From assembly GCA_963969595.1 (NCBI GenBank), contig OZ018415.1, positions 14,508,001-14,572,000 on the forward strand: a stretch of DNA of 64,000 nucleotides, written 5' to 3'. Below, piece by piece: positions 946 through 62,804 of this stretch. Below the pieces are notes generated by a model. It had not been told where the DNA came from. It was given only the letters and a program-made list of their open reading frames with translations, and ran no database searches. Each line of letters starts with the position of its first letter. The stretch's first letter is position 1. The DNA comes from Neckera pumila. Its lineage: Eukaryota > Streptophyta > Bryopsida > Hypnales > Neckeraceae. The position numbers were made by a program, and so were the translations under genes.

Positions 946-1485
946 ACCCTAAAGAACTAAAGCACATTTTGGGCAAAAATTATTAAAAACTGCCATTTTT
1001 TAGGGCAATAAGAAAAAAATGAAAATGAATAGTTTCTCTTCAAAATTTCACCATATAAATTTGTACTATACTTCTCTAGGAATGCCTAGAATTTTTTTCC
1101 AAAACTTCAACCACATGGATTGGAAAATTATAATGTTTGAAGTTAGGAGTTTTTTTCCGCCCTTGCTCATTATAGCTAGCAGACTTTACTCCTCCTAAAG
1201 TGAATTTTTTACATAAAATATGGTTATTTTTTATAACATTTGCATCTTATATCATGTAAGTTACATACTTGCCAAATTTAGAATTATTAGAGGAGTTTTG
1301 CACATGCTGCCTGTAGCTGCCTAAAAAGTTCAAGACAGCATAAATTTGATCTAGGCACCTAGTTGGAAAAAAAATATATTCCTACTAAAGAGGGACATGT
1401 ACACACCATGTGCCAAAAATTTAAGAACATCCGTTAAAAAAATGATTTCATATGCACCTACGTGCATTCAACAGTCCTTTAGGGG
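946..1485. mobile_element. Short TTAA-flanked non-autonomous element (540 bp)
   Basis: TTAA lies at 942-945 and 1486-1489. The ends read ACCCTAAAGAAC and GTCCTTTAGGGG, matching the terminal inverted repeat of the 0.9-kb TTAA family. The interior has the family's phrase about a wide 'atggattggaaaat...' stretch but is shorter and diverged. There is no ORF. Confidence 0.6.
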
Positions 1486-1489
1486 TTAA

Positions 1490-3886
1490 ATCAATGAGCA
1501 TATATATAATAAATTGAAAATGATAAATTGTACATTTATTATAAATTTATATAAGTTCAATTTCAAAAAAAATTCTTAAATTTTTTTCTTTAATATTCTA
1601 AATGGTTGTGAAATGTAATTGGTAACCTATTTTAGAATTTTTTTTTTTAAATTTTCAAGATGGCCATTGCAAACTTTATATTTAATATTTCTTAAAATTT
1701 TACATTGGTTTCTTAGGGACTAAACCTCCAACAATCATTGTTCAATCTCCAAACTAAAAATAAATAAAGGTTCAAGAAGCAAAGGCAATCAAGCATTCAA
1801 AGGTATAAAACATCCAACTTCTTTAATCAAAAAGCAAAACACATAAGGGTTAATCTAATTTTGAAGCAATGGATTAAATGGAATTGAAGTTATTGTCTAA
1901 ATCTAGACTTTAAACAAAAACAAAAAAACAAAAAAACAAAAAACAACTAAGACCAAAAAAATGTAGCAACCATTAAGGTGCTAAAGCCCCATGGGTCATT
2001 TATTTGGGCTTGGAGTTGCAAGAATGGACCAATATTCCAACTTAAAGAAGAATATAATTAGATTTTATGCAACTATGAGTTGTTTCTATTTCAATTACAA
2101 AACAAATGCGAAGGTCCACAAGAATTCAAATGCAATCAAAAAAAAAAGAATCGGCATATCTTCAATGTAGGCCAAAGAGGGATTACAACAAGGGACTACA
2201 ACCAAGCCAATACACCATAATTTTTTATATTTCTATTATAAACAACTTTCTTTCTTTATCTCCAAATCCTTCCTATACAAAAAATTTAAGTTATCCTTTT
2301 CTTTTGAGACAACATAACATTCTTGAACATTCGAGATATTATATTCTGGTATGCCTTTATTTATATAAAAACATTTTAACCACATAAACAAAAAGGAAAC
2401 AAATACTTCTACACAAAGGTTCTAACTTGTACCTCAAGAATTCTAACATTAGTCGAATGGTGGTCATGGGGCACCACAATGACTAGTAACAGAGCATGGT
2501 GCCCAAGGCCCACCAAGCTTGTGCCAAACATGGGCCTTAGATACCATGCTATGCTCCTTTGTTTTAAACCACAAACCACCCACAAACCACCCTTTCTACT
2601 AGTGTAAGAATCACCTTGACTTCAAGGTTTATTCTTGTTTTTATTAAAACAATAAAAAGAAAGAATTCAATTTTTTTTAATTTCCTGAGGGGGTCCCAAG
2701 AGTGAGGACTCACATGAATTCCAGTTCCCCCCCCCCCCCCGCCCCCCTTATGAATGCTGAAAATGGGGCCCCCAAAATTCATGCCGGCAAAATCCTTGGG
2801 ATCCCCCAAACTCTTCAAGAATGTTATGCTCAGGAACTGGATAAAAATTCCAGGATCAATCTTTTTTCCCCAGACAGAATCGAATAAAACTAGATATCAG
2901 TACGACCTCTCAAGCTTTAAAAAAACACAAAAAATCCCACAAAAAATCCCAAAAAATCCAAAACATTCTTCACTCAACCCACCCACAACCACAACCACCC
3001 AACTTGCTCCTTATTTTTTAAGCCAATAAGCATTGCCGAATTCCCATTTTGATTTGCCTGAAAGGCTAAGCCTAAACTACTAAAAAGATTATAAATCGTA
3101 CAAGCATGGCCCTTGGTCTCTTGCAGAATACTCGTTGACAATTCACAAAGTCAGGAATAAAACTGGAACCTACTACTACTACTACTACTGATGATGATGA
3201 TAATCTGACTTTTATTATTCCCGGGGACCGGGGGATTTTTGGCGTAAGTCCCACTCATGACAACCACTTGTACGTCAACTAATTTAATTTACAAATGAAA
3301 TATTATAATAATTGTCCATTTGTTTCAAAATAATAAATAATATTATATGGGCACATGGATATTGCTCTGCGGTGACGGGCACACTTGATTTTCAGTTTGG
3401 GTTCAGAAAAGGGGGCTGCGAGCCCATTCCAAACACATGTGCGTGTCCACGTCGAAACCCAGTTTTTTTAATTTTTTTTAATCATGGGGGATGTACATCA
3501 TCTTTTTTTGGGGATGGACGAAATAATTATTGGTCGAGTGATGGAAATGTCAAGGAGTAGTACTCCTCAGGAACTTTAGGGCATGTCAATATGGTGCATG
3601 GACACCCCTATCAAGGTTATTTGGTGCCAACCTCTGTGCCAACTCAAAGTGATTGAAAAAATGACATTGAAATGGCCTTTGCTGTGAAAATGGCATCGAA
3701 ATGGGCATCAAACTAAACTGGACTAACTTTTTGATGAGTGAGTAGTAGTAGTACTCCCTACAACCTAGCCTCTGTCTAAAAATAAATGGAAATTATTCAA
3801 TGGTAAGTACCACTCCCATTGTTTCCCATGAGAAACCACGGATTTATTTTGGGTAGAACAATATAAATGGTCCTTTGAAATCTATG
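1490..3886. other. Intergenic sequence with simple-sequence tracts
   Basis: No gene is supported. It holds an interrupted poly-C tract (C14 at 2727-2740, G, C6 at 2742-2747) and a compound trinucleotide repeat (TAC/ACT at about 3171-3189, then ATG/TGA to about 3203). Short open frames on both strands around 2560-3560 overlap one another and lack splice or codon support. Confidence 0.5.
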
Positions 3887-4472: not shown

Positions 4473-6057
4473 CCCCTAAGAAACCAATGCAGATTTTGGC
4501 TCCAAAACCATTGAAATCTACCATTTCTGCTGCAATCACTTCCTACACCAAAAAATATATATATAAACCCCTAAAAGCCCATTGTCCCTTCGGGGGACAA
4601 ATGCGTTTTTGGGCAGGTACCTATGGGCTGAAATTTTCTCCTGATTTTTTTAAACTTTTTCCGGAGGTAGAAAAGTTGATTAGCTTCATGGGAATATAAT
4701 CTTTTTCACAATCGGTGCCCAGGAACAAAAGTTATGACCAAATAAGCTCAAAACAGGGGACGGTGGGCAACCTGGGTAGCAAAAAAAAAATGGATAAAAA
4801 TTTGAATTTTTTTTTTAATATTTTTTTCTTATAGATTATATTTTTGTCTATCGGGAAAGCTTTGATTCATTTCATTTGGATTTGTTATGAGAAAGTTATG
4901 GACATTCTTATTTTTTGGGCAATTAGAGCATCTTTTTGAAAAAATAGCTTGTAGGATTCATTTTTGAATGCAATTTTCAAATTTTTCAGTTTTTTTTCTT
5001 TTTGCATGGTTTAGTTTACTTGCTAGAACAATCTCACCCTTGGGATTAATACAATTTACTTCCATCTAAAATTTATGAATATTTTAGATTTTCCTTCTAT
5101 CTTGTACCTACTTCTACTTAGCAATTCTTTTAATAATGAAAATTAAGTTTTTTTGAATTTTATTTTTTAGCTAGATTCTCAACTCAATTCTCTACTATAA
5201 ATATTTAAAGCTCAAAACTCTGTATTGCAAAAATTTCAAGTTAAAAATGATCAAAGTCAAAAAATCCAGTCCCACAATGTGCTGAAAATTTTGCTTTTTT
5301 CACTTCAAATGTAGATATCTTGCAATTTGTGCGGTCAAAAATTTTGAAATTTTTTACACACATTCTCATACTAGTTAGGTGTAAGATAATATGGTTAAAT
5401 GTGCAAAAAAAACAATTTTAATTTTTTTTTCACTCTTTGCTAAAAAAATGACAGTTTTGGGTGTTTTTTGGCAAAAAAAAGGCCTCAGGCCTTTAGGGGT
5501 TAAAATCTAACTGTAGGATCTTGTACTTCACTTGTCTTAGATCATGTAATAAAAATTCATGAAGCTTGACCATACGGATTAGAAGATATTAGCATTTGAA
5601 GTTGAAAAAAGAATTTTTTTTGAATTGTGGCCAGCAATTTCAGATGACTTTGACAGCCATTTGTGGATTTTTTTTGCACTATATACTATAAGTTGTTGTC
5701 TTTGAAGACGCTTACATTGCCCGAAAAAGAAGATTGTCCATAACTTTCTCATTCTGAATCCAAATAGAATGAATCAAAGCTTCAAATGTAGACAAAAACA
5801 TAATCTTTGAGGAAGAAAATTGAAAAAAAAAACCTGATTTTTTTAAGTTTTTTTTTTCCTGCCCGAGGAATTGCTTATTTGACTTTGGGTGGCATAACTT
5901 TTGCTTTTGGGCACTGACTAAAAAAAATTATATTTTTAGAAAGCTAATGTGATTTCCTATCTTCCAAAAAGTTTCAAAAATCAAATCAAAATTTTAGGTA
6001 GCACGAGCCTGCTTGAAATCCCAGGTGTTCCTAGAAGGGACTTTGGTAATTTAGGGG
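4473..6057 (-). mobile_element. TTAA-family element, subfamily C, split by an A element
   Basis: This is a C-type element in reverse orientation, with a left end near 4473 (CCCCTAAG) and a right end of TTTAGGGG at about 6057. It is interrupted at 4568-5499 by a complete A-type element. The two C halves join in the same order as the C copy at 61318-62804. The interior is non-coding and carries the core 'aagcttt...attc' region shared by the family. Confidence 0.65.
4568..5499 (+). mobile_element. TTAA-family element, subfamily A (932 bp), nested
   Basis: It starts CCCCTAAAAGCCCATTGTCC and ends CAGGCCTTTAGGGG, followed by TTAA at 5500-5503; the left flank has decayed to TAAA. Just inside the left end is a small hairpin, TTGTCCC-TTC-GGGGGACAA. 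There is no ORF. It sits inside the reverse C element at the position where the C copy at 61318 has TTAA (61411-61414). Confidence 0.75.
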
Positions 6058-12642: not shown

Positions 12643-13316
12643 AGTGTGCATTGATTGGTATAAAAGAACTACGTAGTGATTCATATAGTATATTCCAATT
12701 GTTGAGTTTGGGTTTATTTGGTTGTTCAACTACAATAGCAGGGATTAGAAGGGTGCGGCCATGAGAGTGCATAATTTGGTCGAGGTGTGTGACGTGATAT
12801 TGGAGGAGTTTATTGATGCATTTTGTGTTGATTTTTTTGTGAGATTAGGGAATTCTTATGCTTGCTTGTGCCACTGTTGTATGAGTAAGCATTAGAAGAA
12901 ATTTCAGGCCTTTAGAGGGCTGCTCCACAGCCCTCCGAGGTACCCTAAAATTTACTTTTTGTTTGCTCAAAATTTTTTTTTCACCTATTTCCGCCCAGTT
13001 GAAACTACATCAGCAATGGTGCGGAACCCAAAATTTCAAATAAAAAATTATTATTTTATTTTTTAAAATTAAAAAAAAAAATTAAAATTAAAAATTAAAA
13101 AAATTAAAATTAAAATTAAAAAAAAAAAAATTAAAAAAAAAAAAATTATATATATATATATTAAAAAAAAATAGTTGCAAAATCTAAATGCTCCGGCAAG
13201 ATGTCATACACTCTGATTGCTCACCAAAAGCACTTTTCGAAGTTGATAGGTCATGTATGAAATAGCATGGCATGTCAACTTGGAACATCCCTCCAAGGGG
13301 CTGAAATTTTCTTTAA
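12643..13316. other. Intergenic sequence with AT low-complexity tract
   Basis: About 13040-13170 is a degenerate (AAATTAAA)n/(TA)n tract. The rest is unassigned AT-rich sequence, with no gene. Confidence 0.5.
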
Positions 13317-14226
13317 TCCCTAAAGTTTCATGACTATATAATCACCAAAAATGCTCCAAAACTACCATTTCTAATACAACTACCAAATTTTTGGAAAAAA
13401 ATAATTTTTGACACATGTAACCATAGGATCTTGTAGTATGGTATTTTGAAAACACATAGTAAAAATTTCAGAAAATTCCACCATGTGGATCATAAGATAT
13501 AAGCATTCAAAGTCTTGAAAACCATTTTTTCAATCCTTTGAAAAACCGGGCAGCTGCACTTTGCAAGCTCACTTTTCAATGAAAAAAAGCTGATAAAGGT
13601 GGTTCTTCTTTGAATTCAGTTTCCTAAACAAGTTTTCTATAAGCTTGAAAAATTTCACATCATTTGGAATTGTACAACATATAGGAAAAGAATAGTAAGT
13701 AGAAAGAAGTAGAAAATGATTCAAAATACTAAATTGTTAAAAATTTAATTAAGGAATTTAAAAATGCCAATCCAATGGTTGTAATAATCAATCTACATCC
13801 TAGGATTTTTTTTTTCCAAAAATATTGAAAACTGAATTAGATAAAGGACTTCATAGTTTATTTTAGAGTAGAGATTCCATAACTACCCTCAAACTAAAAC
13901 TCCTCATAACTTTTGACTCATTGATTGAAATGGAATGACTCAAAGCTTTTTAAGTGTATATAAATGTAGAGAACCATTTTTTTTTAAATGCGGAAAAAAT
14001 GATTTTTTTGGATCTACCCAAGTTGCCCAGTTACGAAAAAAAAGTAACATATTAGGTCACAACTTTTGACTCATATTTTGAAATGTCATGAAACTTGGTA
14101 CACATGAAGATATTCCTTGTCCCTACCTTCTATTAAAATTTCAGCCTCAAATATGGATATCTCTAGTCACACGTACCTGCCCAAAATTTCTATACAGCCA
14201 AAAAATGCATGTTGGTCCTTTAGGGG
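13317..14226 (-). mobile_element. TTAA-family element, subfamily B (910 bp)
   Basis: TTAA lies at 13313-13316 and 14227-14230. It is in reverse orientation: it starts TCCCTAAAGTTTCATGAC and ends GCATGTTGGTCCTTTAGGGG. The interior carries the family core (CAAAGCTTT...tcatttt) and the subterminal 'ggatcttgtagtatg' region. No ORF. Confidence 0.75.
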
Positions 14227-14629
14227 TTAATGGTTTTGTGGAGTGGAAATTGAGGGAATAGACTTCATAGATGTATTGTGTTTCACCTACATTAGATTAG
14301 GATTTCAACACTATTACACCCTCCTCTCCAATTTATATTTCTATGAATTGATTTTGACTTTTTTCAAACTAGATTTTGTTAAAATTTGTTAGAATTTGTT
14401 AAAATGTATTAAAACAATTTATAACAAGGTTTTAACAAAACAAAATGTCAAAGAAAATCTTGTTCAATTTTTTTCATAGATTCTATTGGAGTTTGTTAAA
14501 TTATATTATATTTAACATGATTTAATTAAAATTTTAACTTAAAATAGAAATATATCAGATAAAAAATTTCAAATAAAATCTTAGGAAATTTAAAGGATAC
14601 CTAGTCAGTTTGTACTAGACGGAGTTTAA

Positions 14630-15152
14630 TCCCTAAAGGACCGGGGGTGTTTGAAAATCCCCTTTGTTGAAATGAAAGAAGACTTATTTAGCTTTATTTT
14701 TAAAAAAAGATCAACAAAATTGTTCAATTTTTGAGAAAATGCCACCGTTGGCAAGATTGTTGAAAGATGTTTGGTTAGGTAGTACTTTGTATGTACGCTA
14801 AAATCAAAATGTTGAAATTGGAATGCTCAAAAGTGCTCCAAAAACTCTGATTTTTCTTCCACATGTATATACTATCATAATATTGATGTGTAATTTTTTT
14901 CGAATCATTTTGAGGTGTAGAAAAAAGATATGGGAATGTGAATTAATGGCCCACAACGCCTTTTTCATTCTCACAAAATTCACCAAAAATCGCACACTCA
15001 ATCATTTCTCAATCGGAAGGTATCAACGGATTTAGCAAAGAAATTAATCTAGATCTCTTTGGTGTTCACGAACTGTTAATGAAGTTCATATATTGAATTT
15101 CTTACAAATGTAGCTGTAAAAGCCATGTGGTGGCTTTATGGTCCTTTAGGGG
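14630..15152. mobile_element. Short TTAA-family element (523 bp)
   Basis: TTAA lies at 14626-14629 and 15153-15156. The ends are TCCCTAAAGGACC and GGTCCTTTAGGGG. The paralogous block at 26754-26757 has a single TTAA and no element, giving a clean empty site. Confidence 0.8.
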
Positions 15153-15165
15153 TTAAGGAAAAAAC

Positions 15166-18460: not shown

Positions 18461-20188
18461 GAATTTGAACATTATTTCGCGCCAACTTCAGAATTTTCCA
18501 CTGTGTAGATTGCAATATATGAGTATTCCAATTAAAAAAAATCCCTTTTCTGTCCTTGTGAAAAATTGGGCAGCTGCACTTTACAAAGTCACATTGGTAT
18601 GAAAAATGGTCCAAAATGGTGGTTACACTTTGCATTCATTTTTTAAAGTCAAGTTGGCTACATACTAGAAAAAAATCAGATAATTTAGAATTGTAAAATA
18701 TACAGGAAAATAATAGTAAGTACAAAGAAGTAGAGAAGATTCAAAACTTAAAGTGTTAAGAATTTAATTATAGAATTGAAGTATGCCAATCCCAATGGTT
18801 GAAATGTTGTAATAAAGAATGAATCTACATCGAATGTTTTTATTTTTTTATCAAAAATATTGAAAATTGAGTTAACTCCTAAAGGACCATTGTCCCTTCG
18901 GGGACAAATGGGATTTTGGGCAAGTACCTACAAGCTGAATTTTTGTCGTAATTTTTTGAAACTTTTTTTGAATATAGAGAAACTGATAAGCTTTGTGGGA
19001 ATATAATTTTTTCTTCAATTGGTGCCTGGGAACAAAAGTTATGCCCAAATAAGCTCAAAACAGGGGAGAGGGGGTAGCAAAAAAATTTTGCAGAAAATTT
19101 AATTTTTTTTGAACTTTTTTTTACTTATAGATTATATTTTTGTCTATTTGGAAAGCTTTGATTCATTTTATTTGGATTTTATATGAGAAAGTTATGGACA
19201 ATCTTGTTTTTTGGGCAATTAAAGCATCTTCTTGAAAAAAATACGTTGTTGGATTCATTTTGGAATGCAATTTTTGCAATTTTTCAAATAAAAAAGTTCC
19301 GCATAGTTTAGTTTTTGTGCTAGAACAATCTCACCATTGGAATTAGTGCATTTTAATTCCATCTAAAAGACATTAATATTTTAAATTTTCCTTCTATCTT
19401 GTACCTATTTCTACTTAACAATTTTCTTAAGAATGAAATTTAAGTTTTTTGGAATTTCTTTTTTTTCCCTAGACTCTCAACTCAATTCTCAACTAGAAAG
19501 ATTTAAAGCTCAAAACTCTATAGTGCAAAAAATTTAAGTTAAAAATGTTCAAAGTCAAAAATTGTAGTCCCACAATGTGCTAAAAAACCTGTTTTTTTCA
19601 CTTCAAACGCAGATATCTTGCAATTTGTGCGGTCAAAAATTCTGAAATTTTTTCCGCATATTCTCATATTAATTAGGTATAGGATCCTATGGTTAGATGT
19701 GCAAAGAAAAACAATTTTTAAATTTTTTTAATCTTTGTTCTAGAAATGGTAGTTTTGAGAGTTTTTTGGCAGGAAAAAGGCCTTGGTCCTTTAGGGGTTA
19801 AATAAAGGACTTCAATGTTTATTTTAGAGTAGAGATTTCATAACTACCCGCAAACTAAAACTCCTCATAACTTTCATCTCATTAATAAAAATGAAATGAT
19901 TCAAAGCTTTCCATATATACATAAATCTAGAGAACCGATTTCAAATTCATATTTTTTAAAAGTGATTTTAAAGGAATTTTTTGAGCTGCTCACCAGGCAT
20001 TGAAAATCATGTATCATACAATAACTTTTTAATTGTGCAGTCAAAGTTATGAAAATTGTTGGGCCTTAAAGCTACTCTTTGAAAAAATGTTGTGTGAAAA
20101 TTTCTAAGAAAAAATATATAAACTCGACTTGTAGTGAGCTACCCAAAAATGTTATGTTCTCAAAAAAGCATGTTCAAAGCTTTAGGGG
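18461..20188 (-). mobile_element. TTAA-family B' element, reverse, split by an A element
   Basis: This is the B'-type interior in reverse, with its left end truncated at the junction with the preceding A fragment. It ends GCTTTAGGGG followed by TTAA (20189-20192). The phrase GAAAATTGAG-TTAA-ATAAAGGACTTC, intact at 29788 and 22702, is split here by the nested element 18876-19797. Confidence 0.65.
18876..19797 (+). mobile_element. TTAA-family element, subfamily A (922 bp), nested
   Basis: TTAA at 18872-18875 and 19798-19801 flank CTCCTAAAGGACCATTGTCC and CCTTGGTCCTTTAGGGG. The subterminal hairpin (TTGTCCC-TTC-GGGGACAA) is present. It is inserted in a B' element exactly at a TTAA that is single in two other B' copies (29788-29791 and 22702-22705). 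Non-coding. Confidence 0.88.
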
Positions 20189-20192
20189 TTAA

Positions 20193-22166: not shown

Positions 22167-23361
22167 GGATGTAGACCTCTAAAGGTTTTTGACTATGTTT
22201 TCACCAAAACCGCTCCAAAAGGGCCATTTATAGTACAATATCAAATTTTAGAAAAAAACAAACACATGTAACCGTAGGATCTTGTAGTATGCTAGTTTGA
22301 AAAGATGTGGGTATAAATCTCTGAAATTTTCACTGTGTAGATTGCAAGATATTAGCATTTGAAGTGACAAAAATCCTTTTTTTTAGCCTTGCAAAAGAAA
22401 GAGCAGCGTCAATTAAAATTGTATAAAAAAACGGTCCAAAATGCTTGTGCATCTTTGATTCATTCTTCATTTCAAATTGGCTACATTCTTTCAAAAGTTT
22501 CAGATCATTTGGAATGGTACAACGTATGGAAAAAAAATACGGAGTAGTAAGTAAGAAGAAATAGAGAATGATCCCAAATATTGAATTGTTAAGAATTTAG
22601 TTATGGAATTGAAAAAATGCCAATTCCAACGGTTGGAATGATGTACAAAACAATGTACACCCAATGTTGTTTTGTTTTTTTCAAAAATATTGAAAATTGA
22701 GTTAAATAAAGGACTTCAAAGTTTATTTTAGAGTAGAGTTTCCATAACTACCCGCCTACTGTCTACAACTAAAACTCCTCATAACTTTAGACTCATTGAT
22801 CAAAAATCAAATGATGCAAAGCTTTCTATGTATACGGTAGAGGCACCCATTGTCAATCTGGACCCATTCCCAATCTATAGGAGATACTATTTTCAATCTT
22901 AGCTAGAACAAACCTAAACAAATCCAATCTAAGCTTGGAATGTGTTTTTTCAAGGTAGGGACTAATAAGGTTGAGACACATGTCCCAAAGTAGTGAGTGA
23001 AAAAGCAGTTCTTGACGGATTGGAATTAGAAGAATCTAGAGATTGGCAATTGGTCCTGAGTACTTTTTGCCTCCCAAAATTCACAATAATTTCAGCATTG
23101 GGAATAAAATTATAAAGAACTTTCGATCCCCTCATTTCCTATATTTTTACATGTGAAAAATTTGCTTCGTCATAAACTGCTCATGATTTGCTGGGAAATC
23201 CCGTTAAAGATCAACAATGGGTGCCTCTATCTTATATAAATCTGGAGAAAAAGTTTCAAATTTTTATTTCTTAAAACAATGATTTTTTAAAATATGCCCA
23301 AACTGCCTATCCTCGCCCAAAAAATACATATCATGCAATAACTTTCCAAGTGGTAAGGGAT
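22167..23361 (-). mobile_element. TTAA-family B' element, reverse, split by a TA MITE
   Basis: It starts CCTCTAAAGGTTTTTGAC (the left TTAA has decayed) and follows the reverse B' interior, including the uninterrupted TTAA site at 22702-22705. It is broken by the MITE at 22840-23227. The right end is truncated near 23361, just before AAGGGATTAA. Confidence 0.6.
22840..23227. mobile_element. TA-target MITE with GAGGCACCCATTG ends (388 bp)
   Basis: The left end GAGGCACCCATTGTCAATC and right end ATCAACAATGGGTGCCTC are inverted repeats. TA flanks both sides (22838-22839 and 23228-23229). It interrupts the B' element at a point that is continuous in other copies. Confidence 0.7.
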
Positions 23362-23689: not shown

Positions 23690-25240
23690 ATCAGAGGGAG
23701 GACCTACGCAAGAGAGACCAGATGGTACAAAGGCAAAGATATCTCCGGGGCAATGTCGAGCCAAAAATGCAAAGGCTGGAATCAAAACGGATATGGGGTC
23801 CCATTAGAGGATGTTCTCCAAGGATGTGGACAAGAATGGTTTGGGCATACTCCCATACTTCCAAAACTCAAAGGCAATAGTAAAACCTATTGATGGGTGG
23901 CTAATCTGGATTGCCAGAAACAACAAGGTTTTCTTCCAAACTCACTGGCCACAAGGTTTTTTTCAACAAGCTCTTTGGAATTCTTTGTTGGATGCAGGGC
24001 GAGCGACTCAAATTAATCCCTAAATGCCCAAAGTCCCCTCATGAGGCACTTGAGATTTTGGGTAGGCTCGTGTGACCTCAACTTTTGACCTGATTTTTTG
24101 AAACTTTTTTGGAAGTTTTTTTGGAAGAGAGGAATCACATTAGCTTCTAAAAATACAATTCTTTTTTCAATTGGTGCATGGGTGCAAAAGTTATGCCATC
24201 CGAAGTCTGAAAAGTAATTCGCTGGGCAGAACAAAAAAACGCAAAAAATTAATTTTTTTAATTTTAATTTTTTTCCTAAGAGATTATGTTTTTATCTACA
24301 TTTGAAGCTTAGATTCATCCTATTTGGACTAGTAATGAGAAAGTTACGGACAACGTTGTTTTTTGGGCAATTTTTGCATCTTAAAAAAACAAAAACTTAT
24401 AGAATTCTTTTTTGAATGCAATTTTCAAAAAAATTCAAATTTTTTTGATAAGCTAAAGTTTGTTTGTAAGAAGAATCTCACCATGGGCATTATGATTTTT
24501 CCATTCTATCTAAGAGCTATTAACAATTTTGTGTTTCATTCAATCTTAGACCTACTTTCACTTAATATTTCTTTTATATGTGAAAATCAACTTTTGATAT
24601 GCTAAAATTCTTTTATCCAACTTTCAACTCAAATGTTCAACAAAAAAAAATTATACATTTATGGTTTGTAGTACAAAAACTTTCCATAAATGGAGCTCAA
24701 AGTCATCTGAAATAGCAAGCTAGCATTCCAAAAAACATCTTTTTTCAACTTCAAATGCTAATATCTTTCAATCCATATGGTCAAACTTCATGAAATTTTT
24801 ACCACATGATCCGAGACAAGTGAAGTACACAATCCTATGGTTAGATCTTTAAAAAAATGTTTTGGTTTGGTTTCTTGAGTGATCGCAACAGAAATGGTAG
24901 TTTTCAGTGGTTTGAGAGTCAGAAAATGCCTTGGACATTTAGGGATTAAAAGCTTAGGGTGAAGCTATCTATAGGCCTGGGCGGGCTTTAGACATTTGGG
25001 CCATATTTGATAATATCCATCTCCAATCTCTGGTTCTTGCCTCTCGTTTTGGTGACCATATTAGCTGGAACAGAAGGGGTCCCCCTTCTTGCGAGCCTTC
25101 TTGTCAGTTTTTGTAGTCTCTCTTAAGGGCCTTTATTGATTCTCTCCTTTGTTTCAATGCTCAATTTCTTGGCTTAGCTGGCTTGTATATGATTTCTATT
25201 TTTAATGCAATGGGATTTTTCCATTTGTTAAAAAAAAAAT
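23690..25240 (+). mobile_element. 5'-truncated LINE fragment split by a TTAA element
   Basis: The region 23890-24012 encodes WLIWIARNNKVFFQTHWPQG and then QQALWNSLLDAGRATQIN, a segment typical of the region downstream of plant LINE reverse transcriptases. After the inserted C element (24017-24945) it resumes, and it ends with ATGCAATGGGATTTTTCC plus a poly-A run at about 25230-25240. It is frame-disrupted throughout. The closest relative in the window is 6280-6930 on the minus strand. Confidence 0.6.
24017..24945 (+). mobile_element. TTAA-family element, subfamily C (929 bp), nested in LINE
   Basis: TTAA lies at 24013-24016 and 24946-24949. The ends are TCCCTAAATGCCCAAAGTCC and CTTGGACATTTAGGGA. 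The homologous LINE at 6563-6566 (minus strand) has a single TTAA and no insertion. No ORF. Confidence 0.82.
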
Positions 25241-27424: not shown

Positions 27425-27440
27425 GTCATTCAAACTTTAA

Positions 27441-28339
27441 CCCCTAAAAGACCAGCATGCATTTTTTGGCAACATAATAATTTTGGTAGGTTGGTATAAA
27501 TGAGGATTTGCATAATTCGGCTAAAATTTTATTAGAAAGTGTGGACAAAGGATATCTTTTGCACTAAATTTCATGACATTTGAAAAAATGAGTCAAAAAT
27601 TATGGCCTAATATGTTACTTAGTTTTACAAATGGGCAATCCAAGCAAATTAGCAAAAAACACTTTTCCAAAAACAGAAATTTGAAATTGTTTTTTAAGAT
27701 TTATATATATATATATGAAGAGCTTTGAATCATTCCATTTTTATCAATGAGATGAAAGTTATGAGGAGTTTTTGTTTGCAGGCACATTTAGATTCTCTTG
27801 TCTAAAATAAACTTTGAAGTCTTTTATTTAACTCAATTTTCATTATTTTTTGAAAAAAAAAAACATGGCGTGTAGACTGTTTATTACAACATTACAACCA
27901 CTGAAATTGGGATTTTTCATTTCTATAACTAATTCTTAACAATTTTGTATTTTGAATCTTGCTCTAGTTCTTTCTACTTACTATTTTGTTTATAGATGTT
28001 GTACAATTTCAAATGATGTGAAAATTTTCAAGCATGTAGCTGAATGCAAAGAAGCACCATCACTTTGGACATTTTTTTGTAGAAAAGTGAGCTTGTGAAG
28101 AGCAACTGCCTTATTTTTTGCAAGGCCAAATAAATGTTTTCAATGAATTTGAATGCTTATATCTTGCAATACATGTGGTGGAAATTTCTGAAATGTTTAC
28201 CACATGTTTTTGAGTTAGAATACTACAAAATCTAATGGATGTATGTCAAAAAAAGTTTTTTTCAAAAATTTGATATTTGTACTAAAAATGGCAATGTTGG
28301 AGCATTTTTGATGAAAACGTAGTCATAGAACTTTAGGGA
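27441..28339 (+). mobile_element. TTAA-family element, subfamily B (899 bp)
   Basis: TTAA lies at 27437-27440 and 28340-28343. It begins CCCCTAAAAGACCAGCATGC and ends CATAGAACTTTAGGGA. Forward orientation, no ORF. It is inserted at the edge of the duplicated block. Confidence 0.8.
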
Positions 28340-28343
28340 TTAA

Positions 28344-28989: not shown

Positions 28990-29257
28990 GGGGTTGGCTA
29001 AAGAGCCATATACAGTCACTTCAAAAATTGAAGACCTCAAGTCTAGATTAGGGTTTGGAATTCAATAGGAAGCCATCAATGCCAAAGTCATAGCTATATT
29101 TCCAACACCTCATAGCTCAATAGGATTTAGAGCTTAATGGAAAGCAATGATTATTAAAACCATAGTCAAACATCCAATACTTCATGGCTAAAGCAAGAAG
29201 TGGAGCTCAAAAGAAAACCATGGTAGTCAAATCTATTGCCAAATATTGAAGATATAA

Positions 29258-39574: not shown

Positions 39575-39578
39575 TTAA

Positions 39579-40496
39579 CCCCTCAACTACCAAAGTCCCC
39601 TTGGGGGATGCTTGAGGTTTTAGGTAGGCTCGTGCGACTTGAAATTTTGACCTGATTTTTTGAAACTTTTTTTAAAGATGGGAAATCACATTAGCTTTCT
39701 AGAAATATAATTTTGTTTTCAATCGATGCTTGAGAGCAAAAATTATGCCACCCAAAGTCAAAAAAGCAGTTCACCGAGTAGAAAAAAAAAACTTTAAAAA
39801 ATTGAATTTTGTTTGAAAAAAAATTCTCTTAAAGATCATGTTTTTTCCTACATTTGAAGCTTTGATTCATTCTATTTGGACTCAAAACAAGAAAGTTATG
39901 GACAATCTTGATTTTCGGGCAATCTAAACATCTTCTAAAAAAACAACTTATAGAATTCATTTTTGAATGCCATTTTCAAGTTTTTTCAAATTTATTTTTT
40001 GACAAGGTTAATTTTGTTTTCAAGAACGATTCCGCAATTGGGATTGTGGTATTTTAATTCCACCTAAGAGCTATTAACGATTTAGTATTTTGTTCAATTT
40101 TGGACCTACTTCTACTTAACAATTTTTTTATATGTGAAAATCAAGTTTTGACATTTTGAAATTTTTTTCCGTGTCTCTTAACTCAAATATTCAATATAAA
40201 AACTTTTAACTTTATCATGTGTAGTGCAAAAAAAAGTCCACAAATGGCCGTCAAAGTCATCTAAAATTGCAAGCTAGAGTTCAAAAAAACTTCTTTTTCT
40301 AACTTCAAATGCTAATATCTTCTAATCTATACGGTCTTTCTTTATGAAATTATTACTACATGATCTAAGACAAATGAAGTACAAGATCCTACGATTAGAT
40401 TTTTTTTTAAAGTTTTTCTTGGTTTAAAAAGTGATCGCAGCAGAAATGGCAGTTTTCAGTGGTTTTGGAGCCAAAACTGCCTTGGTATTTTAGGGG
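39579..40496 (+). mobile_element. TTAA-family element, subfamily C (918 bp)
   Basis: TTAA lies at 39575-39578 and 40497-40500. It starts CCCCTCAACTACCAAAGTCC and ends CTTGGTATTTTAGGGG. An imperfect hairpin (AGTCCCC-TTG-GGGGAT) sits just inside the left end. Forward orientation, non-coding. Confidence 0.82.
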
Positions 40497-40500
40497 TTAA

Positions 40501-42121: not shown

Positions 42122-42125
42122 TTAA

Positions 42126-43081
42126 CCCCTAAAGGACCAACATGCGTTTTTTGGCCGTATAGAATTTTTGGGTAGGTACATACAGTTAGAGATTTCTATA
42201 TTTTTGGCTGAAATTTTAATAGAAGGTGGGGGCAAGGAATATCTTTCATATGCACCAAATTTCATGACATTTGGAAATACAAGTCAAAAGTTATGGCCTA
42301 ATATGTTACTTTTTTTTGTAACTGGGCAGTCCGGCAGATCAGAAAAATCACTTTTTTCCAAAAAAAAAATTTTGAAATTTGTTTTCTAGAGTTATATACA
42401 CATAGAAATCTTTGAATCATCACATTTTGATCAATGAGTCAAAAGTTATAAAGATTTTAAGTTTGCAGGCAGTTATAGATTTTCTACTCTAAAACAAACT
42501 TTGAAGTCCTTTATCAATTTTAACCAAACTTTGAAGTCCTTTATCCTTACTCAATTTTCAATATTTTTTGGAAAAAATAAAATCCTAGGATGTAGATTAT
42601 TTATTACAACATTGCCACCATTGGGATTAGCATTTTTCAGTTCCATAATGAAATCCTTGACAATTTTGTATTTTGAATAATTCTCTACTAGTATCTACTT
42701 ATTATTTTTTTCCTATATGTTGTACAATTCCAAATGAAGTGAAAAATTTCAAGCATGTAGCCAACTTGTCTAGGAAAAATAATCCAAAGAAGCACCAACA
42801 TTTTGGACATTTTTTCTTTGAAAAGTGAGCTTGTGAAGTACTGCTGCCCTATTTTTTGCAGGGCCAAAAAAATGATTTTAGTGAATTTGAATGCATATAT
42901 CTTGCAATCCACGTGGTGAAAATTCCTGAAATTTTTACCATATGTTTTCAAGTCACCATAATACAAGATCCTATGGTTACATGTGTAAGATTTTTTTTTT
43001 CTTCAAAAAATTGGATACTTGTACAAAACATGGCAGTTTTTGAGCATTTTCGGTGAGAACATAGTCATGGAACTTTAGGGG
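42126..43081 (+). mobile_element. TTAA-family element, subfamily B (956 bp)
   Basis: TTAA lies at 42122-42125 and 43082-43085. It starts CCCCTAAAGGACCAACATGC and ends ATGGAACTTTAGGGG. It has a short internal direct duplication (TTTGAAGTCCTTTAT at about 42499 and 42530). Forward orientation, non-coding. Confidence 0.85.
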
Positions 43082-43085
43082 TTAA

Positions 43086-46252: not shown

Positions 46253-49200
46253 GTGTGTGTGTGTGTGCACGTGTGCTTTTAAATTTTTTTTTTTTTTATA
46301 GTGTAAACTATCTATTTCTTACATTGTGATATATAAAAATGAGAATGAAAAAACAATCCTTGTTTGTTTAAATAAAATGAAAAAAAATCTAATAGTCAAC
46401 TTGAAAAGAGTGTCGAAAATCTTGAGTTGGCATATGGATTGGAGGCACCCCGTGTTGGAGGTGAAAGCAAATTGACTTCCAAACTACTAGGTATTGTATA
46501 TATTTTATATTTGATTTATTTATGTTCAATGATATTGGTAAAATTCTCATTATATTTTATGATATTTTTTTAAGTCATCTTTAATGCATATTTTTTATTT
46601 AATATGAATTAAAAAATAGTACCAAAAATCCATTATACCAATATGCAAGTGCAATTGTAGTGTTTAGGTTTGAAAGCACGCTTGCAAGAAAAACAACTCA
46701 TATGCAACAGTTGTGATATTGAAATTTGTTTACTCCGTAAAGACTTACGTGTGACCCATTGTCGAGTAAAATTCTACATACGTGGTCATTACCGAAATAT
46801 CAATCATTTTCTATTAATTACTAATAAATTATTATTCTTTGAAATCATATCCTATGATAAAGATTCTTAATCTAAGATATTGCTTGAAATCAAATATCAA
46901 ATGAATTATGAAATATTTTTCTTTAAATTTATTTTATCAAATCAATATTTCATCACTTTTGAAATGTAAAATTATCATTAATCATTTCAAACTATCATAT
47001 TTAATTGTCAAACAAGTTTTAAAATAACTCCATTAGAAACCAATAGTTATGTTTTGAGAGGTTATAGAATAAAATTGATGCATCCATCTAATTGAACTCA
47101 ATCATGCATACCAATACTTGACTATTCATGCATCTTCATGAATCTCTTGTTCATTTCCAGTGAAAACCTTAAAAAATTTGACCCAAATTTAGCCAACTTA
47201 TACAAAACATATCAGTCAATTGTGCTTGTATTGTGATAAGTTAGTGCCTCAAGGAAAATATACACAAACAAGAAAACCATGAAGAAAATAAAAAATAAAA
47301 AAATATATTTGTCAGTACGTATTTTTATGTTACCAGCTTACCCTTTTATTTAAATTTTCATCCTGTTCCCAAATATATTAGTGCACAATCTTTTGGGCAC
47401 TATCCAAACATTGACAACTTCCAATCATCATAAGTTTTTGAATCATATGTTGAACCCCTAAATAACCAAACGTCCATTCAAGGAACAATTGGAATTTGGG
47501 TAGGGGATGATGAAGTAAAAATGAACGAATGTTTTTGAAAAAATGAACGAATGACACAAGGTGGAGACATTCACCTCCTTTGTCTTTTGTGAGAATGCAA
47601 ATTTTTTGATTGGATGCCTAGATAAAAAGTTATGCTGCCCAAGAAAATCCAAGTTGTTTAAGCACTTCTAATACCTTTTGCAAAAAGTTCATCTACTTTT
47701 AAAAAATTTCATTTATGAAACTAACATCATTTAATGCAATTTTCAAAAACTATTTTTAATGCAAAATTCATTCTAAAGGGAGTCCAAAGTCTACTAACTA
47801 TGCTTAGCAATTCTGAAAAAAAACTTTTGCTTAATGAATTGCTCAATTAAAAAATTATAATCTTTTAATCCATGTGGTTAAATGGGTTGAAATTTTTCAA
47901 CACATTCTAATAATAGTCTACTAAATTTTCTATGATTGAAGTTAAAACTAGATTATTTTCAATTGTGGCCCATGCACTAAAAAATGGCAATTTTTGACAA
48001 TTTTTCTTTAAAAATAACTCTACTCCTTTGGGGGTTAATGTGTGCCTTTTTGACACCTTAATTTATATACAAATAAATTCATTGATGTATGTGTGTTTAA
48101 TTTTAAAAATTTATGAGCTTATAATCATTGATACATAATGACTTAAATTTGAATTTATATTTTAATTGAAATTTGATTAAATTATTGTGTTGAATTTGGA
48201 TTTTTTTCAATTGTTCTTTTTATCTCCATTAATATATAATTTGTCTTAGAATTCAAAAAAAATATTGTATTGAAATGAATGAAATTACAAAGTAATCAAA
48301 AATTGTGTTTTTGTTCCTAATTTAATCAATGATAGTCATAGAAAGTATACTTTCTTAATCCCTAAAGGACCATTGTCTGTTTGGAGGACAAATGGAATTT
48401 TGGGCAAGTACCTACGGGCTAAATTTTCTCTTGATTTTCTAAAACTTTTTGCGAACGTGAAGAATTGAAAGAAGTATGTGGCGGAGAAAACAAATTTTGA
48501 AATCAGACCTTCAAGCGAGAAGTTATGCCATTTCTTGGAATGCGTGGGGAGGGGGTGGGGGTGGGGGTGGGGCAGCAAAAACATTTTGCAAAATTTTGAA
48601 TTTTTTTTGAATTATTTTTTTTCTCATAGATTATATTTTTGTCTATCTGGAAAGCTTTGATTCATTTCATTTGGATTTGTTATGAGGAAGTTATGGACAT
48701 TCTTGTTTTTTGGGCAGTTAGAGCATCTTCTTGAAAAATATAACTTGTAGGCTTCATTTCGGAATGCAATCTTTGTAATTTTTCAATTTTTTTTTTGTAA
48801 TGGTTTTGTTTACTTGCTAGAATAATCTCACCATTGGGATTAGTGCATATCAATTCCATCTAAAATATATGAATATTTTAGATTTTCCTTCTATCTTGTA
48901 CCTACTTCTACTTAACAATTTTCTTAAGAATGATAATGAAGTTTTTTTGAATTTTGTTTTCCCCCTAGACTCTCAACTCAATTCTCCACTATAAAGATTT
49001 AAAGCTCAAAACGCTGTAGTGCAAAAATTTTAAGTTAAAAATATTTAAAGTCAAAAAATCTGGTCCCGCAATGTGCTGAAAAATTTGTTTTTTCCACTTT
49101 AAATACAGGTATCTTGCAATCTATGCGGTCAAAAATTCTAAAATTTTTCCACACATTCTCATATTAGTTAGGTATAAGATCCTACGGTTAGATGTGCAAA

Positions 49201-52200
49201 AAAGATAATTTTTAAATTTTTTTACTCTTTGCTCTAGAAATAGCAGTTTTGAGAGTTTTTTGGCAAAAAAAAGGCCTTGGTCCTTTAGAGGTTAACCCCT
49301 AAAGCCCTGAACATGCTTTTTTGAGAACATAGTGTTTTTGGGTAGCTCACTACAAGTGGAGTTTTTAATTTTTTTCTTTGAAATTTTCACACAACATTTT
49401 CCTGAGGAGTAGCTTTAAGGCCCAACAATTTTCATAACTTTTGATTGCATTGTTAAAAAGTTATTGTATGATATGTGATTTTCAATGCTCAGCGGGCAGC
49501 TCAAAAAATTCTTAAAAAATCACTTTTAAAAAAAATAAAAATTTGAAATTAGTTCTCTAGATTTATATATACATGAAAACCTTTGAACCCTTCCATTTTG
49601 ATTAATGAGATGAAAATTATGAGGTGTTCTAGTTTGCGGGCAATTATGGATTCTCTACTCCAAAATAAACTTTGAAATCCTTTATTTAACTCAATTTTCA
49701 ATATTTTTGAAACAAAATAAAAACATTGGATGTAGATAGGTTATTACAACAATTAGAACCATTGGGATTGGCATTTTCAATTCTATAATGAAATTCTTAA
49801 CAAATTAGTGTTTTTAATCATTCTCTACTTCTTTCTACTTACTATTTTTTCTCTATATGTTGTACAATTCCAAATGATCTGAAATTTTTCAAGCATAAAG
49901 CCAACTTGATTTCAAAAATGAACCCAAAGAATAACCACCATTTTGGACATTTTTCCATACAAGTATGACCTTGTGAAGTGCAACTGCCCGTTTTTTTGCA
50001 GGGACAAAAAAAGGGTTTTTCTCAATTCAAACACTAATATCTTGCAATCTACATAGTGGAAAATTTTGAAATTTTTTCCACAAATTCTCAAACCAGCGCA
50101 CTACAAGATTTTATAGTTACATGTGTCCAAAAATGTTTTTTTTCTAAAATTTGATACTTGTTTTAGAAATGACAGTTTTGGAGCGTTTTGGGGGAAAACA
50201 TAGTCAAAAACCTTTAGGGATTAAACATCATTCATTGAACCTTGATGTTTTACATATATATTTATATGAGGAAATAGGAATTCCAAGTTGTGATAATTGT
50301 ACTTCTAATGGCAATAGTTCACAATCACTTGGATTCAATATACATTGTTGATAGTAGTTGTTAATGGTAGTAGAAATATGTAATCATATACATATTTGTG
50401 AATTAATAAAAATACAAATTAACTGTAAAGAATATTTTCAAATAATTTGTAATTAGAATATATTTTTATTGTAATAATTAAAAATTATTTACAAATTTAT
50501 TATTATTATTATATGCATTGATTTTTTAATTTGATAATAATTGATTATTTATTTATGATGTAATTTAGGAACTTGAAATTGAACGGGATTTGCTTGCAAG
50601 TGAAGTGGGTACACTTCAAAAAGCCTTAAGGGGCCTTCGACATATTTTTGTTCGTGTAAATAGTGAAAATGATGAAATTCAAAGAGTACGGAAAAAAATT
50701 AGTAAATTGGAAATTGCAAATAAAGAACTGGAGAATAAAATTACAGTGAGATTTGATGCACTACATTTCATTTTAAAATGAATAGTTTTCCAAAATTAAA
50801 GAGGAATTCAAATTTGCTAAGAACATAAATAAGATATTATACCTTTTAATATAAATATTTCGAATTACTTTTTCATATACAAACAATATTTAAAAATAAA
50901 GCTTTTATGACTTTCACATTATCTAAAATAGTAATATGAATATATTATTTTAATAGAATAGTGGAAAATCCAATACTAGTTTTTTATTTAATCTTGATTT
51001 CAAAACATTATTTGGATCATCTTAGAGCACCCAAAAAGCTATTGGAGATGCAAAGGCGGAAATTGTTGTACTTGCCAATCAAAGTTTGGCAGCGCAATCA
51101 GGTGCTAAAAGTGCAAATTCAAAACTCTTGGAGTTAGTAAATCACTCACAAGTACTGACAAAATTGAAACACCAAGAAGAATGCGAGAGAATAAAATTAG
51201 AGCATTCAATATTAAAGATTGGCAACGACACGCGACAAATTTTGAAGGATAAAATTGCTGCAGAAAAGAAAGCTTTATACAATGCTCAAGCATCTCCACA
51301 AACACCACCTGCTCAAATTAAGTTCAAGGCCCCGGAGCAACCACCGGACTCACCGAGTGGAGATGCTATGGCTCAATTAGAGGCAGAATTTATAGCTGAA
51401 GTTGAAATCGCCGCTGTCGAGTTTATTGAAACCGTACCGGCATCCCAACCTCCATCACCTAAGACGGAAGAGCAATTGAAAGACCAACATTTGACTTTTG
51501 AAAATCGTAAAGGAATTTTCGCAGAAAAAGTGGAGGATGCTGAGATATGTTTTTTGATGGCAATGGAAGAAATTGAATATGGGAAAGCACAAACTAAGAA
51601 AGGACAATCCATGGCAAAGAGATTAGCAGCTGCGGAAAAAGCCCGCTTAGCTGCTGAAAATGAGAGGTTGGCAGCTGAAGCCCTTGCCCAAAAATTAGCG
51701 GAGGATGCAAAGAAAGCACAAGAAGAAGCAGCAAGGTTGCAAGCTGAGTTGGAGAAACTATGGGCTATGGGCTCAGGTGATAAACGTTGGAAGAGTGAGA
51801 AGACAAATATTACTTTGGGAGGGGAGCTTCTCAAGCCATCCGAGTATAAGATTCAAGTACTTGATAAACGTGAAGAAATTGACATTGATGTTGATATACC
51901 TTCTCCATCTCCTCACGGTCCAAGTGCATGCGATGGAGATGTGGCACGTGAAAAAGCGAATCGGAAAAAACTAAATGAATTGAATAGCGCGAAAGCCAAG
52001 GCAGAAGCGGAAGCAAAACGTTTGGATGAAGAAATGAGGAAAGCACAACAAGAGCGAGATAGAATGGCTGCGGAATTGGCAAAGTTGCAAAGTAAGGGGG
52101 CTGGTTTAGATGAAGAAATGAAGAAAGCGCAACAAGAGCGAGATAGAATGGCTGCGGAATTGGCAAAGTTGCAAAGTAAGGGGGCTGGTTTAGATGAAGA

Positions 52201-60016: not shown

Positions 60017-61313
60017 ATCAATATACATAATTTTAATATTGATTTAATAATATTTTGTGATTGATTGAGCAAAATTTTCTAAAATAGAAAGTAGATAAAA
60101 TTTCATTAATATTCTATTTAGTAATTTTATAAACATTATTTCATTTAAAAACTGAATAATATTTTTACATACAAAATATGATACCGTAAAAAAAAAAAAC
60201 TTGCATAAGCTCTATAATCAATGTAATACTATACATTTGAATCTATTAATCTGGTTTGTTTTTATAAACATTTGTACAAATTTTCTTTATAATTGAAAAT
60301 TTTCAAAAGTTTAATATGGCATGAATCCAAACTTTAGTCTTTCATAATCCCAACCTCATGTATATTAATTGAATGAGAGACAAATATGACTTAAAAAGTA
60401 AACACATTGCGTTTACTTATGCAAACTCTATTTTCATACCCTTTTTATTTCTAAATGTTTAAATAATTATTTTAATTAATTGTTTAATCTTTTGTAAAGG
60501 CATAATTTGGATTTGGATTTATAATGTTTATATATTAATAATTTGCCTAAAGGTATATTCTATATTCAAATATGTTACAATCATAGGAATGAAACAACAT
60601 CAACATAAGAAACATAACTTTTATATCCTTTGATAAATTCAAGCATACATATTAGATTCTAAATATATTTATTGTCATATTTGTTGTCAAAATTTAATTT
60701 CCACGTTTCAGTTCAAGAAGTTATAACCTATCAAATAATGATATGTGTCACTTTTGACGAGCAAGAAACAATTATAAATATTATCCAATTACTTTGTAGA
60801 GACATAAAATTATTTCACGTAAATGACTAGTAGCTAATGCAAAAAATTATATAAAATTTTGAGCTTTGTAATATTAAGCTTTATACATCAAACAAATCAT
60901 ATTAATATAATATTGCTCATGTGTCAACAACAACACCAATTAAAAGAATTGTGTTCAAAAAAATAGTATTTTGCTAAAACACCTATTAAAAGTTCAAGAC
61001 ATAATCACTCAAACTTTAAGAATGTTTCCAAGGTTTTTTTCAAGATACGATACAAAAATTAATTCATTTCATTCAATTTCAAGTAACTAACATGAAATGT
61101 TTTCTATTCACTTTTCACTTTTCAACTTGACAATTTTGAGCATTCATGCCAATGTTCACTATCTCTCTCTATATAGGTTAGTTTTTTTTTCTTTTTGTGT
61201 CATGATAATACCACAAATGTGTATGGTCCTAAGATAATATTGATGCCATTAATATATTTATTTAAAAATAAAAGGTGTTAGCTATTTGTTTAACAAGATT
61301 TGGATGTGCTAAT
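60017..61313. other. Unassigned AT-rich sequence
   Basis: No exon, tandem repeat or TIR recognised. It contains short CTCTCTCT and poly-A runs only. Confidence 0.4.
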
Positions 61314-61317
61314 TTAA

Positions 61318-62804
61318 CCCTTCAAGTCCCAAGGCCATTTTTCTGTCAAAAAACACTCAAAACTGCCATTTTTGCTACGTTCATCCAAGAAAACAAAAAG
61401 AACCATTTTTTTAATCTAACCATAATACTATATCCTTCACTTGTCGAAGATTATGTGGTAAAAATTTCATGAAGTTTGACCATGTAGATTGGAAGATATT
61501 AGCATTCAAAGTTGAAAAAGAAAGTTTTTTTGAAAACTGGCTTGCAATTTGACCTCTATTTGTGGAAAATGTTTGCTCTACAAACTTTGAACTTAAAAAT
61601 TTCTATGTTGAAGAATTGAGTTGAAAGTCTTGAAAAAAGAATTCGAAAAAAAACACTTGATTTTTATTCTTTAAAAATTTATTAAGTAGAAGTAGGTCCA
61701 AGATTGAAAAAAACTAAACTATTAATAGCTTTAAGATGGGATTGAAACACAATAATCTCAATGGTGAGATTGTTTTAGCAACCAAATACTCCCTCTATCC
61801 GACTAAAAACCTCCAAAAAGCTTCCATACAAGGTATTAACTATATTTTTAGTCTTTGTGTTAGTGATACATGCATTCAAAAATCAAAAACCCTTCCCTCA
61901 CATCTCCTTACATAGATTGATCTATGTAAAATCTCCAACTTAGGCGTCATCGTTTAAGCACCCAAAATTCATGCGGAAAGTATCATATTTGAGCATAGTT
62001 TGTGAATGCTGCCAGCTCCATCATTTTTGATGATTAAAAGGTTGGTGGCAACAATGGATTCTAAGAACATTTGACCCAACCCAAATACCTGCAAGAAGGA
62101 ACCCTGGCCTACTTCATAAACAAATTTTCATAGTGCCAAAGTGGTCATCAAATCCATCGTTGTTTGAGGAAGCACAACAAGTAAGAGGTACCTCACATAG
62201 GCAAGGCCAAGCTTTCTAGAAGAGGAATGCTCCCTAATCTCTTAACTTGCCCCCCACGTGGTCATTCAACACGGCCAATGCATACTCAACAGTCAAAATT
62301 ATAAAATGGAGCTTTTTAGTGGGACATAAATTGTGCCTGATTTGGAGTTTTTTAGTAGGATAGAAGGAGTACAACCTTGTCAAACAATTTTTTTGAAAAA
62401 TTGTAAAAATGGCATTCAAAAATGAACTATAGTTTTTTTTTCAAGAAGATGTTTAGATTGCCCCAAAAAACAAGATTGTCCTTAATTTTTTCATTATTAG
62501 TCCAAATAGAATAATCAAAGCTTCACATGTAGACAAACTATAATACTTTAGGAATTTAAAAAAAATTATTTTGACTTTTTGCAATTTTTTTTGTATTGCT
62601 CGTTGGTTTTAGTTCTAAGCTTTTTTTGTGGTATAACTTTTGCTCCTGGTCACCAATTGAAACAAAAGTTGTATTGCCATATAGCTAATCAATCCATTTT
62701 TCTATCTTATGAGAAAGTTTAAAAAAGTTTAACAAGGAATTGAGGTTACAAGAACCTGCCCAAAATCCAATTTGTTCTTTGAAGAGACAATGGGACTTTA
62801 GGGG
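61318..62804 (-). mobile_element. TTAA-family element, subfamily C, split by a Stowaway-like MITE
   Basis: TTAA lies at 61314-61317 and 62805-62808. It starts CCCTTCAAGTCCCAAGGCC and ends TGGGACTTTAGGGG. Without the 581-bp insert it is about 906 bp. It keeps the uninterrupted TTAA at 61411-61414 that is the empty site for the A insertion in the C copy at 4473. Confidence 0.78.
61789..62369. mobile_element. Stowaway-like MITE (581 bp) nested in a TTAA element
   Basis: The left end CTCCCTCTATCCGACTAAAA is inverted at the right end as TTTTAGTAGGATAGAAGGAG. TA flanks both sides (61787-61788 and 62370-62371). It interrupts the C element between parts that are adjacent in the other C copies. Confidence 0.78.

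What the first reader, a model, noticed from the sequence alone, without database searches (positions are those of the whole stretch)
946..62804. A large non-coding element family that inserts at TTAA, proven by five empty sites inside the window
Seen directly: about twenty copies have ends TTAACCCCTAAAGGACC and GGTCCTTTAGGGGTTAA (allowing a few changes), and full-length ones are about 0.9 kb with no ORF. Occupied/empty pairs: 18876-19797 versus 29788-29791 (also 22702-22705); 14630-15152 versus 26754-26757; 29258-30249 versus 26948-26951; 24017-24945 versus 6563-6566 (minus strand); 4568-5499 versus 61411-61414. In every empty site the complete TTAA is single. Known: TTAA duplication plus ends starting CCC is the hallmark of piggyBac. 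Inference: this is a piggyBac-like, non-autonomous family that has been highly active in a land plant, where as far as I know piggyBac families are rarely described.
Basis: partly seen in the sequence, partly recalled or inferred. Interest (0 to 1): 0.88.

Follow-up and report, generated by a model that had tools for sequence, protein, structure and literature searches.

The report
Abundant piggyBac transposons in a moss
This moss genome carries thousands of short pieces of jumping DNA, and longer relatives with the same ends carry a gene of the piggyBac type, a group well known from animals but rarely described in land plants.

Summary
The window comes from a 339.5-Mb genome; a gene in it best matches mosses among named proteins. 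The tip CCCCTAAAGGACC occurs 13,867 times genome-wide (6 in the reversed control); 12,107 (87%) follow TTAA, although TTAA was not part of that query. Two loci hold 7.2-7.3 kb elements with exactly these ends around a piggyBac (PF13843) transposase gene (L046, L049), 95.9% identical from TTAA to TTAA and dissimilar outside. A related 5.6-kb family with near-identical ends (L039/L040) has an 894-codon frame with all four catalytic aspartates. The 0.9-kb non-coding copies look like non-autonomous derivatives: 30 of 41 match the termini of the large elements, against 0 of 41 in each of two controls. Corrections: at least two non-coding families, not one; median K2P is about 0.3, so most copies compared are old; of five empty sites two are clean, two weak, one blurred at the junction. 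The mechanism is known; host and scale are the news: a 2022 table of land-plant superfamilies omits piggyBac.

The parts
18872..19801 (+). Family 2 non-autonomous element (930 bp with both TTAA), nested inside a family 1 copy (18484-20192)
   Evidence: TTAA both sides; unoccupied relatives at 29644-29902 and 22556-22835; both ends match L046/L039 termini
4564..5503 (+). Family 2 element; left target now TAAA; inserted into another family 2 copy (about 4468-6059)
24013..24949 (+). Family 2 element
   Evidence: TTAA both sides, weak empty site 6615-6422
32232..33152 (+). Family 2 element
   Evidence: TTAA both sides
39575..40500 (+). Family 2 element
   Evidence: TTAA both sides
48355..49295 (+). 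Family 2 element sharing its right TTAA with the family 1 element at 49292
61314..62808 (-). 1495 bp between TTAA sites with family 2 ends; only the outer parts (61314-61790, 62373-62808) resemble other copies
29254..30253 (+). Family 1 element (left target now ATAA); holds an unoccupied relative of the 18872 target at 29788-29791
13313..14230 (+). Family 1 element
   Evidence: TTAA both sides
30607..31525 (+). Family 1 element
42122..43085 (-). Family 1 element
   Evidence: exact 17-mer at one end, TTAA both sides
49292..50224 (-). Family 1 element, abutting 48355-49295 at a shared TTAA
53079..53990 (+). Family 1 element
   Evidence: TTAA both sides
18484..20192 (+). Family 1 copy interrupted by the 18872-19801 insertion
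   Evidence: BLAST of 29258-30253 against the window matches 18487-18887 and 19797-20192
22175..22834 (+). Family 1 fragment with an unoccupied relative of the 18872 target
27437..28343 (-). Family 1 fragment
14626..15156 (.). Separate 531-bp element with the same kind of ends; no relative among the copies compared
   Evidence: TTAA both sides, empty site at 26604-26902, 87.5%; singleton
942..1489 (.). 548-bp element, TTAA-ACCCTAAAGAACT ... AGTCCTTTAGGGG-TTAA
   Evidence: read directly; right end also

Best explanation
These are non-autonomous (MITE-like) piggyBac elements in a moss. A piggyBac DDD transposase, encoded by 5.6-7.3 kb relatives in the same genome, recognises ends of the type CCCCTAAAGGACC plus subterminal sequence, excises the element and inserts it at TTAA, which is duplicated. 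Shown: shared ends, TTAA targets, unoccupied relatives of targets, transposase genes inside the same ends, conserved catalytic residues. Inferred: that this transposase actually moves the 0.9-kb copies in trans, and the excision chemistry. The 0.9-kb families probably kept the ends of such elements while the interior was lost or replaced, then multiplied over a long time, with at least one younger cluster.
For: Genome-wide: 13,867 exact tips, 12,107 after TTAA, reversed control 6. L046 1081-8303 and L049 1589-8888 carry the exact 17-mer at both ends around PF13843, 95.9% identical from TTAA to TTAA; ungapped identity over 60 bp is 77% and 98% just inside the two ends and 23% and 38% just outside. 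L039/L040 (5.6 kb, 98.8%) end in TTAACCCCTAAAGTCCC. PF13843 E 4.6e-80 in the genome search and 4.9e-81 for the L001 protein; L001 aligns to T. ni piggyBac 6x67 at E 3.2e-35 with D268, D346, D447 and D450 opposite aspartates; the L049 frame holds the same three motifs. 30 of 41 copies show terminal-to-terminal similarity to L046/L049/L039; 0 of 41 reversed copies and 0 of 41 other window segments do. Unoccupied relatives for the five named targets, two of them clean; one more outside the window, L031 versus L006, with a diverged site.
Against: No transposition was observed. The two loci with exact GGACC ends both look damaged: L046 has an in-frame stop between its 324- and 509-codon frames, and the L049 frame ends before the cysteine-rich tail. 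Eleven of 41 copies, including the 531-bp element, show no terminal match to L046, L049 or L039 at E <= 1e-4, although a few of these match the right end of L043. Subterminal identity is only about 67-75% over the longer matches. A coding partner specific to family 1 was not found.
Confidence: 0.95

Rival explanations
1. The elements belong to another TTAA-targeting superfamily such as Kolobok, and the piggyBac transposases lie between these ends by chance or by hitch-hiking.
For: TTAA duplication alone does not separate the superfamilies (recalled). I did not search the genome for Kolobok transposases.
Against: Two copies at different loci (L046, L049) are bounded exactly by TTAA and the inverted ends and contain the transposase; a sister family (L039/L040) repeats this with a long open frame and near-identical ends.
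Confidence: 0.03
2. PIF/Harbinger-like elements with a 3-bp TWA duplication misread as TTAA.
For: PIF-Harbinger is a listed land-plant superfamily (PMC9033089 Table 1).
Against: 12 of 14 copies keep the full TTAA at both ends and the two clean empty sites keep one TTAA; 87% of tips follow TTAA; the transposase found inside the ends is piggyBac.
Confidence: 0.01
3. Real piggyBac elements, but in the sequence of an animal or other contaminant rather than a plant.
For: The relatives with an organism name are animal, plus one fungal fragment.
Against: The scored transposase matches lie on contigs C1 to C11, several of them chromosome-sized; the window itself holds a gene whose best named matches are Physcomitrium and Ceratodon; the six own transposase domains lie in one group (support 99) that holds none of the animal proteins in the tree.
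Confidence: 0.02

Closest known systems
piggyBac superfamily (T. ni piggyBac, PDB 6x67; piggyBat, PDB 9c0f)
   Same: TTAA target and duplication, ends starting CCC, PF13843 transposase with the four catalytic aspartates; a cysteine-rich tail by eye in L001
   Different: Host is a moss. Elements are 5.4-7.3 kb (T. ni 2,472 bp per PMC10140906, passages seen); frames of 844 and 894 codons between stops with a long N-terminal part, acidic by eye; true start and introns unknown
Non-autonomous piggyBac derivatives (MITEs) of animals
   Same: Share ends and subterminal DNA with coding elements, no gene inside
   Different: About 0.9 kb, at least two unrelated interiors on one kind of end, 26.5% of this window; comparison with animal families is recalled, not run
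The six TIR superfamilies listed for land plants: Tc1-Mariner, hAT, Sola, MuDR-Foldback, PIF-Harbinger, CACTA (PMC9033089 Table 1)
   Same: Elements with inverted ends, some with MITE derivatives
   Different: Other transposases; piggyBac is not in that table

Membership tests
piggyBac superfamily | TTAA target-site duplication | tested here: met
   12,107 of 13,867 tips after TTAA; two clean empty sites and three less clean
piggyBac superfamily | Terminal inverted repeats beginning CCC (or CAC) | tested here: met
   CCCCTAAAGGACC at both ends of L046 and L049
piggyBac superfamily | Transposase of the DDE_Tnp_1_7 type inside the same ends | tested here: met
   L046, L049, and L039 with two bases different; PF13843
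piggyBac superfamily | Catalytic D268, D346, D447 (and D450) | tested here: met
   L001 aligned to 6x67; same motifs in L049
piggyBac superfamily | C-terminal cysteine-rich domain | tested here: inconclusive
   Visible by eye in L001, L007 and L046; no domain model matched it; the L049 frame ends before it
piggyBac superfamily | Seamless (footprint-free) excision | not testable with these tools
   No reads or second individual available
PIF/Harbinger | 3-bp TWA duplication | tested here: not met
   Four-base TTAA at both ends in 12 of 14 copies and single in the clean empty sites
Kolobok | Kolobok transposase in the autonomous partner | not tested
   Partner found is piggyBac; no Kolobok search was run

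The most novel reading that the evidence does not exclude
Mosses carry their own ancient, vertically kept and strongly diversified clade of piggyBac transposons, with enlarged transposases and elements, which has supplied a sizeable share of this genome (26.5% of this window) and stayed active until recently. It would be a seventh TIR superfamily of land plants, missing from the plant classification I could read.
Probability: 0.5. Interest if true: 0.7.

Novelty: new member of a known kind. Interest (0 to 1): 0.6.

Why it matters
piggyBac is a main tool for animal gene transfer (recalled) and is left out of the plant element lists I read. A moss with more than 13,000 piggyBac ends, and coding copies still 98.8-98.9% identical, makes it testable whether the superfamily is native to plants, whether it came once or several times, and whether a plant-adapted transposase works better in plant cells than the insect one. 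It also suggests that plant repeat annotation may leave such DNA unclassified.

Tried and rejected
Rfam on the window: no match. A search of the 4-kb loci L001-L008 for the 17-mer gave only weak matches (5-6 mismatches); the ends lay outside those stretches and appeared once 10 kb were fetched. Of 12 loci fetched at 10 kb (L039-L050, all from the 15 best-scoring of 116), both boundaries were established in 7: L039, L040, L041, L046, L048, L049 by their ends, L042 by alignment to L041 alone. L043 and L050 showed one exact GGACC end and no left end; L044, L045 and L047 stayed unresolved. L041/L042/L048 is another family with different tips (CCCCTTGGGGACT) and no BLAST match to the window or L009-L038 (run with L041), so it is not the partner.

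I first read the 4568 empty site as unsupported; one search corrected this to 'flanks match, junction unreadable'. Typing the host by its LEAFY gene was dropped because the genome search did not complete. A genome count of the shorter end TTAACCCCTAAAG did not complete.

Literature, open-licence papers only, mostly seen as capped listings: 30 of 46 listed; 20 of 91; 9 of 10; 20 of 50; 5 of 6; 20 of 23; 8 of 8; 10 of 58; 10 of 10. No listed title or abstract start reported piggyBac in a moss; I opened passages of only a few, so a mention in a body text or supplement is not excluded. PMC10619864 uses 'piggybacking' of gene expression (passages). Against 'never in land plants': PMC6890710 lists 1,230 PiggyBac matches, 0.00%, in a fern (passage); PMC10140906 says piggyBac has been identified in plants (passage); PMC10794571 names PiggyBac among plant superfamilies (passage). 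PMC11709435 lists PiggyBac 0 in yerba mate (passage). PMC5791352 mentions it in a reference only.
Full report
WHERE IT IS. The window is contig C8:14508001-14572000 of a genome of 339.5 Mb in 18 contigs. A gene at about 34.46-35.2 kb, which I spliced by eye from two frames, matches unnamed proteins at up to 93%; among organisms named it matches Physcomitrium patens (76%) and Ceratodon purpureus (77%) best, then Sphagnum (47-52%) and flowering plants (42-52%). The host is therefore most likely a moss outside those genera; the species is not identified.

THE ENDS ARE REAL. In the window the 17-mer is found 12 times at <=4 mismatches (mean 0.33 in 3 mononucleotide shuffles). In the genome the exact 17-mer occurs 6,010 + 6,097 times with none in the reversed control. 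The tip without TTAA occurs 6,913 + 6,954 times with 6 in the control. Thus 12,107 of 13,867 tips (87.3%) follow TTAA although it was not asked for. In the window 16 of 21 loosely matched ends adjoin TTAA, against 0.9% by composition.

EMPTY SITES. I joined the flanks of 15 intervals and searched the window and the loci then held. Of the other ten intervals only 49296 gave a spanning match, to its own neighbouring end, which I do not count; 27721-28343 was a fragment without ends. Outside the window, the element in L031 interrupts DNA whose unoccupied relative lies beside the transposase gene of L006, with a diverged site.

FAMILIES. Of 41 elements compared (30 found by paired ends in the loci and window, 11 added from the window), 24 fall in family 1, 15 in family 2, and 2 are singletons. 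Median K2P is 0.312 (276 pairs) and 0.352 (105 pairs); the closest pair is 0.026. Most copies compared are therefore old, with a younger cluster in family 1. The loci were the first 30 exact matches on C1 plus transposase loci, not a random sample. Similar sequence covers 16,991 of 64,000 window bases.

THE CODING PARTNER. The genome search scored 116 PF13843 matches of 872 candidates, on C1 to C11. I fetched 12 of the 15 best at 10 kb. L046 (7,223 bp) and L049 (7,300 bp) have the finding's exact 17-mer at both ends, match each other at 95.9% from TTAA to TTAA, and do not match outside. Their subterminal sequence continues as in family 2 (TTAACCCCTAAAGGACCATTGTCC and TTAACCCCTAAAGGACCAAGGCC). 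L039/L040 (5.6 kb, 98.8%) have ends two bases different and an 894-codon frame. L041/L042/L048 (5.4 kb, 98.8-98.9%) are a further family with CCCCTTGGGGACT ends. The remaining five loci are incomplete: L043 and L050 show one exact GGACC end, L044, L045 and L047 none that I could pair.

LINK BETWEEN SMALL AND LARGE. With L046, L049 and L039 as targets, 30 of 41 small elements have a terminal-to-terminal match, against 0 of 41 reversed copies and 0 of 41 window segments elsewhere (one of those segments has a match that is not terminal). Of the 15 family 2 copies, 12 match L046 or L039 at both ends and 3 at one end. Family 1, where it matches these two, does so at one end. Family 1's own coding partner was not found.

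THE TRANSPOSASE. L001 (the gene of L039) matches PF13843 at E 4.9e-81 and T. ni piggyBac (6x67) at E 3.2e-35, with D268, D346, D447 and D450 opposite aspartates. The tail of L001 resembles the cysteine-rich domain by eye. The L046 and L049 genes look damaged, so the intact-looking enzyme seen here is the L001 type.

RELATIONSHIPS. The search with the L004 type returned 118 relatives, 117 without an organism name (sources jgi, lgn, ena), up to 77% identical; the one with an organism name is a locust protein at 34%. For the L007 type 51 relatives came back; those with an organism name are animals and one fungus. In a quick tree of 91 rows chosen from these, the six own domains lie in one 35-row group (SH-aLRT 99) without any of the animal proteins, labelled or not; the fungal one was not in the tree. 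Depth within this group suggests long residence, but its unnamed members may or may not be mosses, so horizontal transfer is not excluded.

MECHANISM. Shown: ends, TTAA duplication, transposase genes within the ends, catalytic residues, nested and adjacent insertions. Inferred: trans-mobilisation of the small elements by these transposases, and cut-and-paste with hairpin ends as in piggyBac (recalled).

NOVELTY. A 2022 review of land-plant elements lists six TIR superfamilies, without piggyBac (tables and legends section read; passages). A 2008 grapevine paper names five described in plants (passage). My searches, mostly seen as listings, showed no moss report. The fern trace and two general statements listed under Tried and rejected count against absolute absence. 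I rate this as a new member of a known superfamily in an unexpected host and at unexpected scale.

Noticed in passing
window 49292-49295; L048 1856-1859; L041 1990-1993: Two elements abut and share a single TTAA, as if one had inserted exactly at the other's target duplication.
   Followed up: partly
element ends, e.g. window 19785-19801: The end TTAACCCCTAAAGG contains CCCTAAA, the plant telomere repeat unit (recalled); it may confuse telomere-repeat scans or hint at an origin.
   Followed up: no
L043 7394-9899: A unit of roughly 350 bp appears to repeat in tandem at the right end of a piggyBac copy, and resembles stretches in L050 and L046.
   Followed up: no
window 21035-22047 (-): Frames that read like a CACTA/TNP2-type transposase remnant (by eye).
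   Followed up: no
window 51026-52606 (+): A 526-codon coiled-coil-like frame (by eye) with three tandem 84-bp repeats (52020-52272) and no Pfam match.
   Followed up: partly
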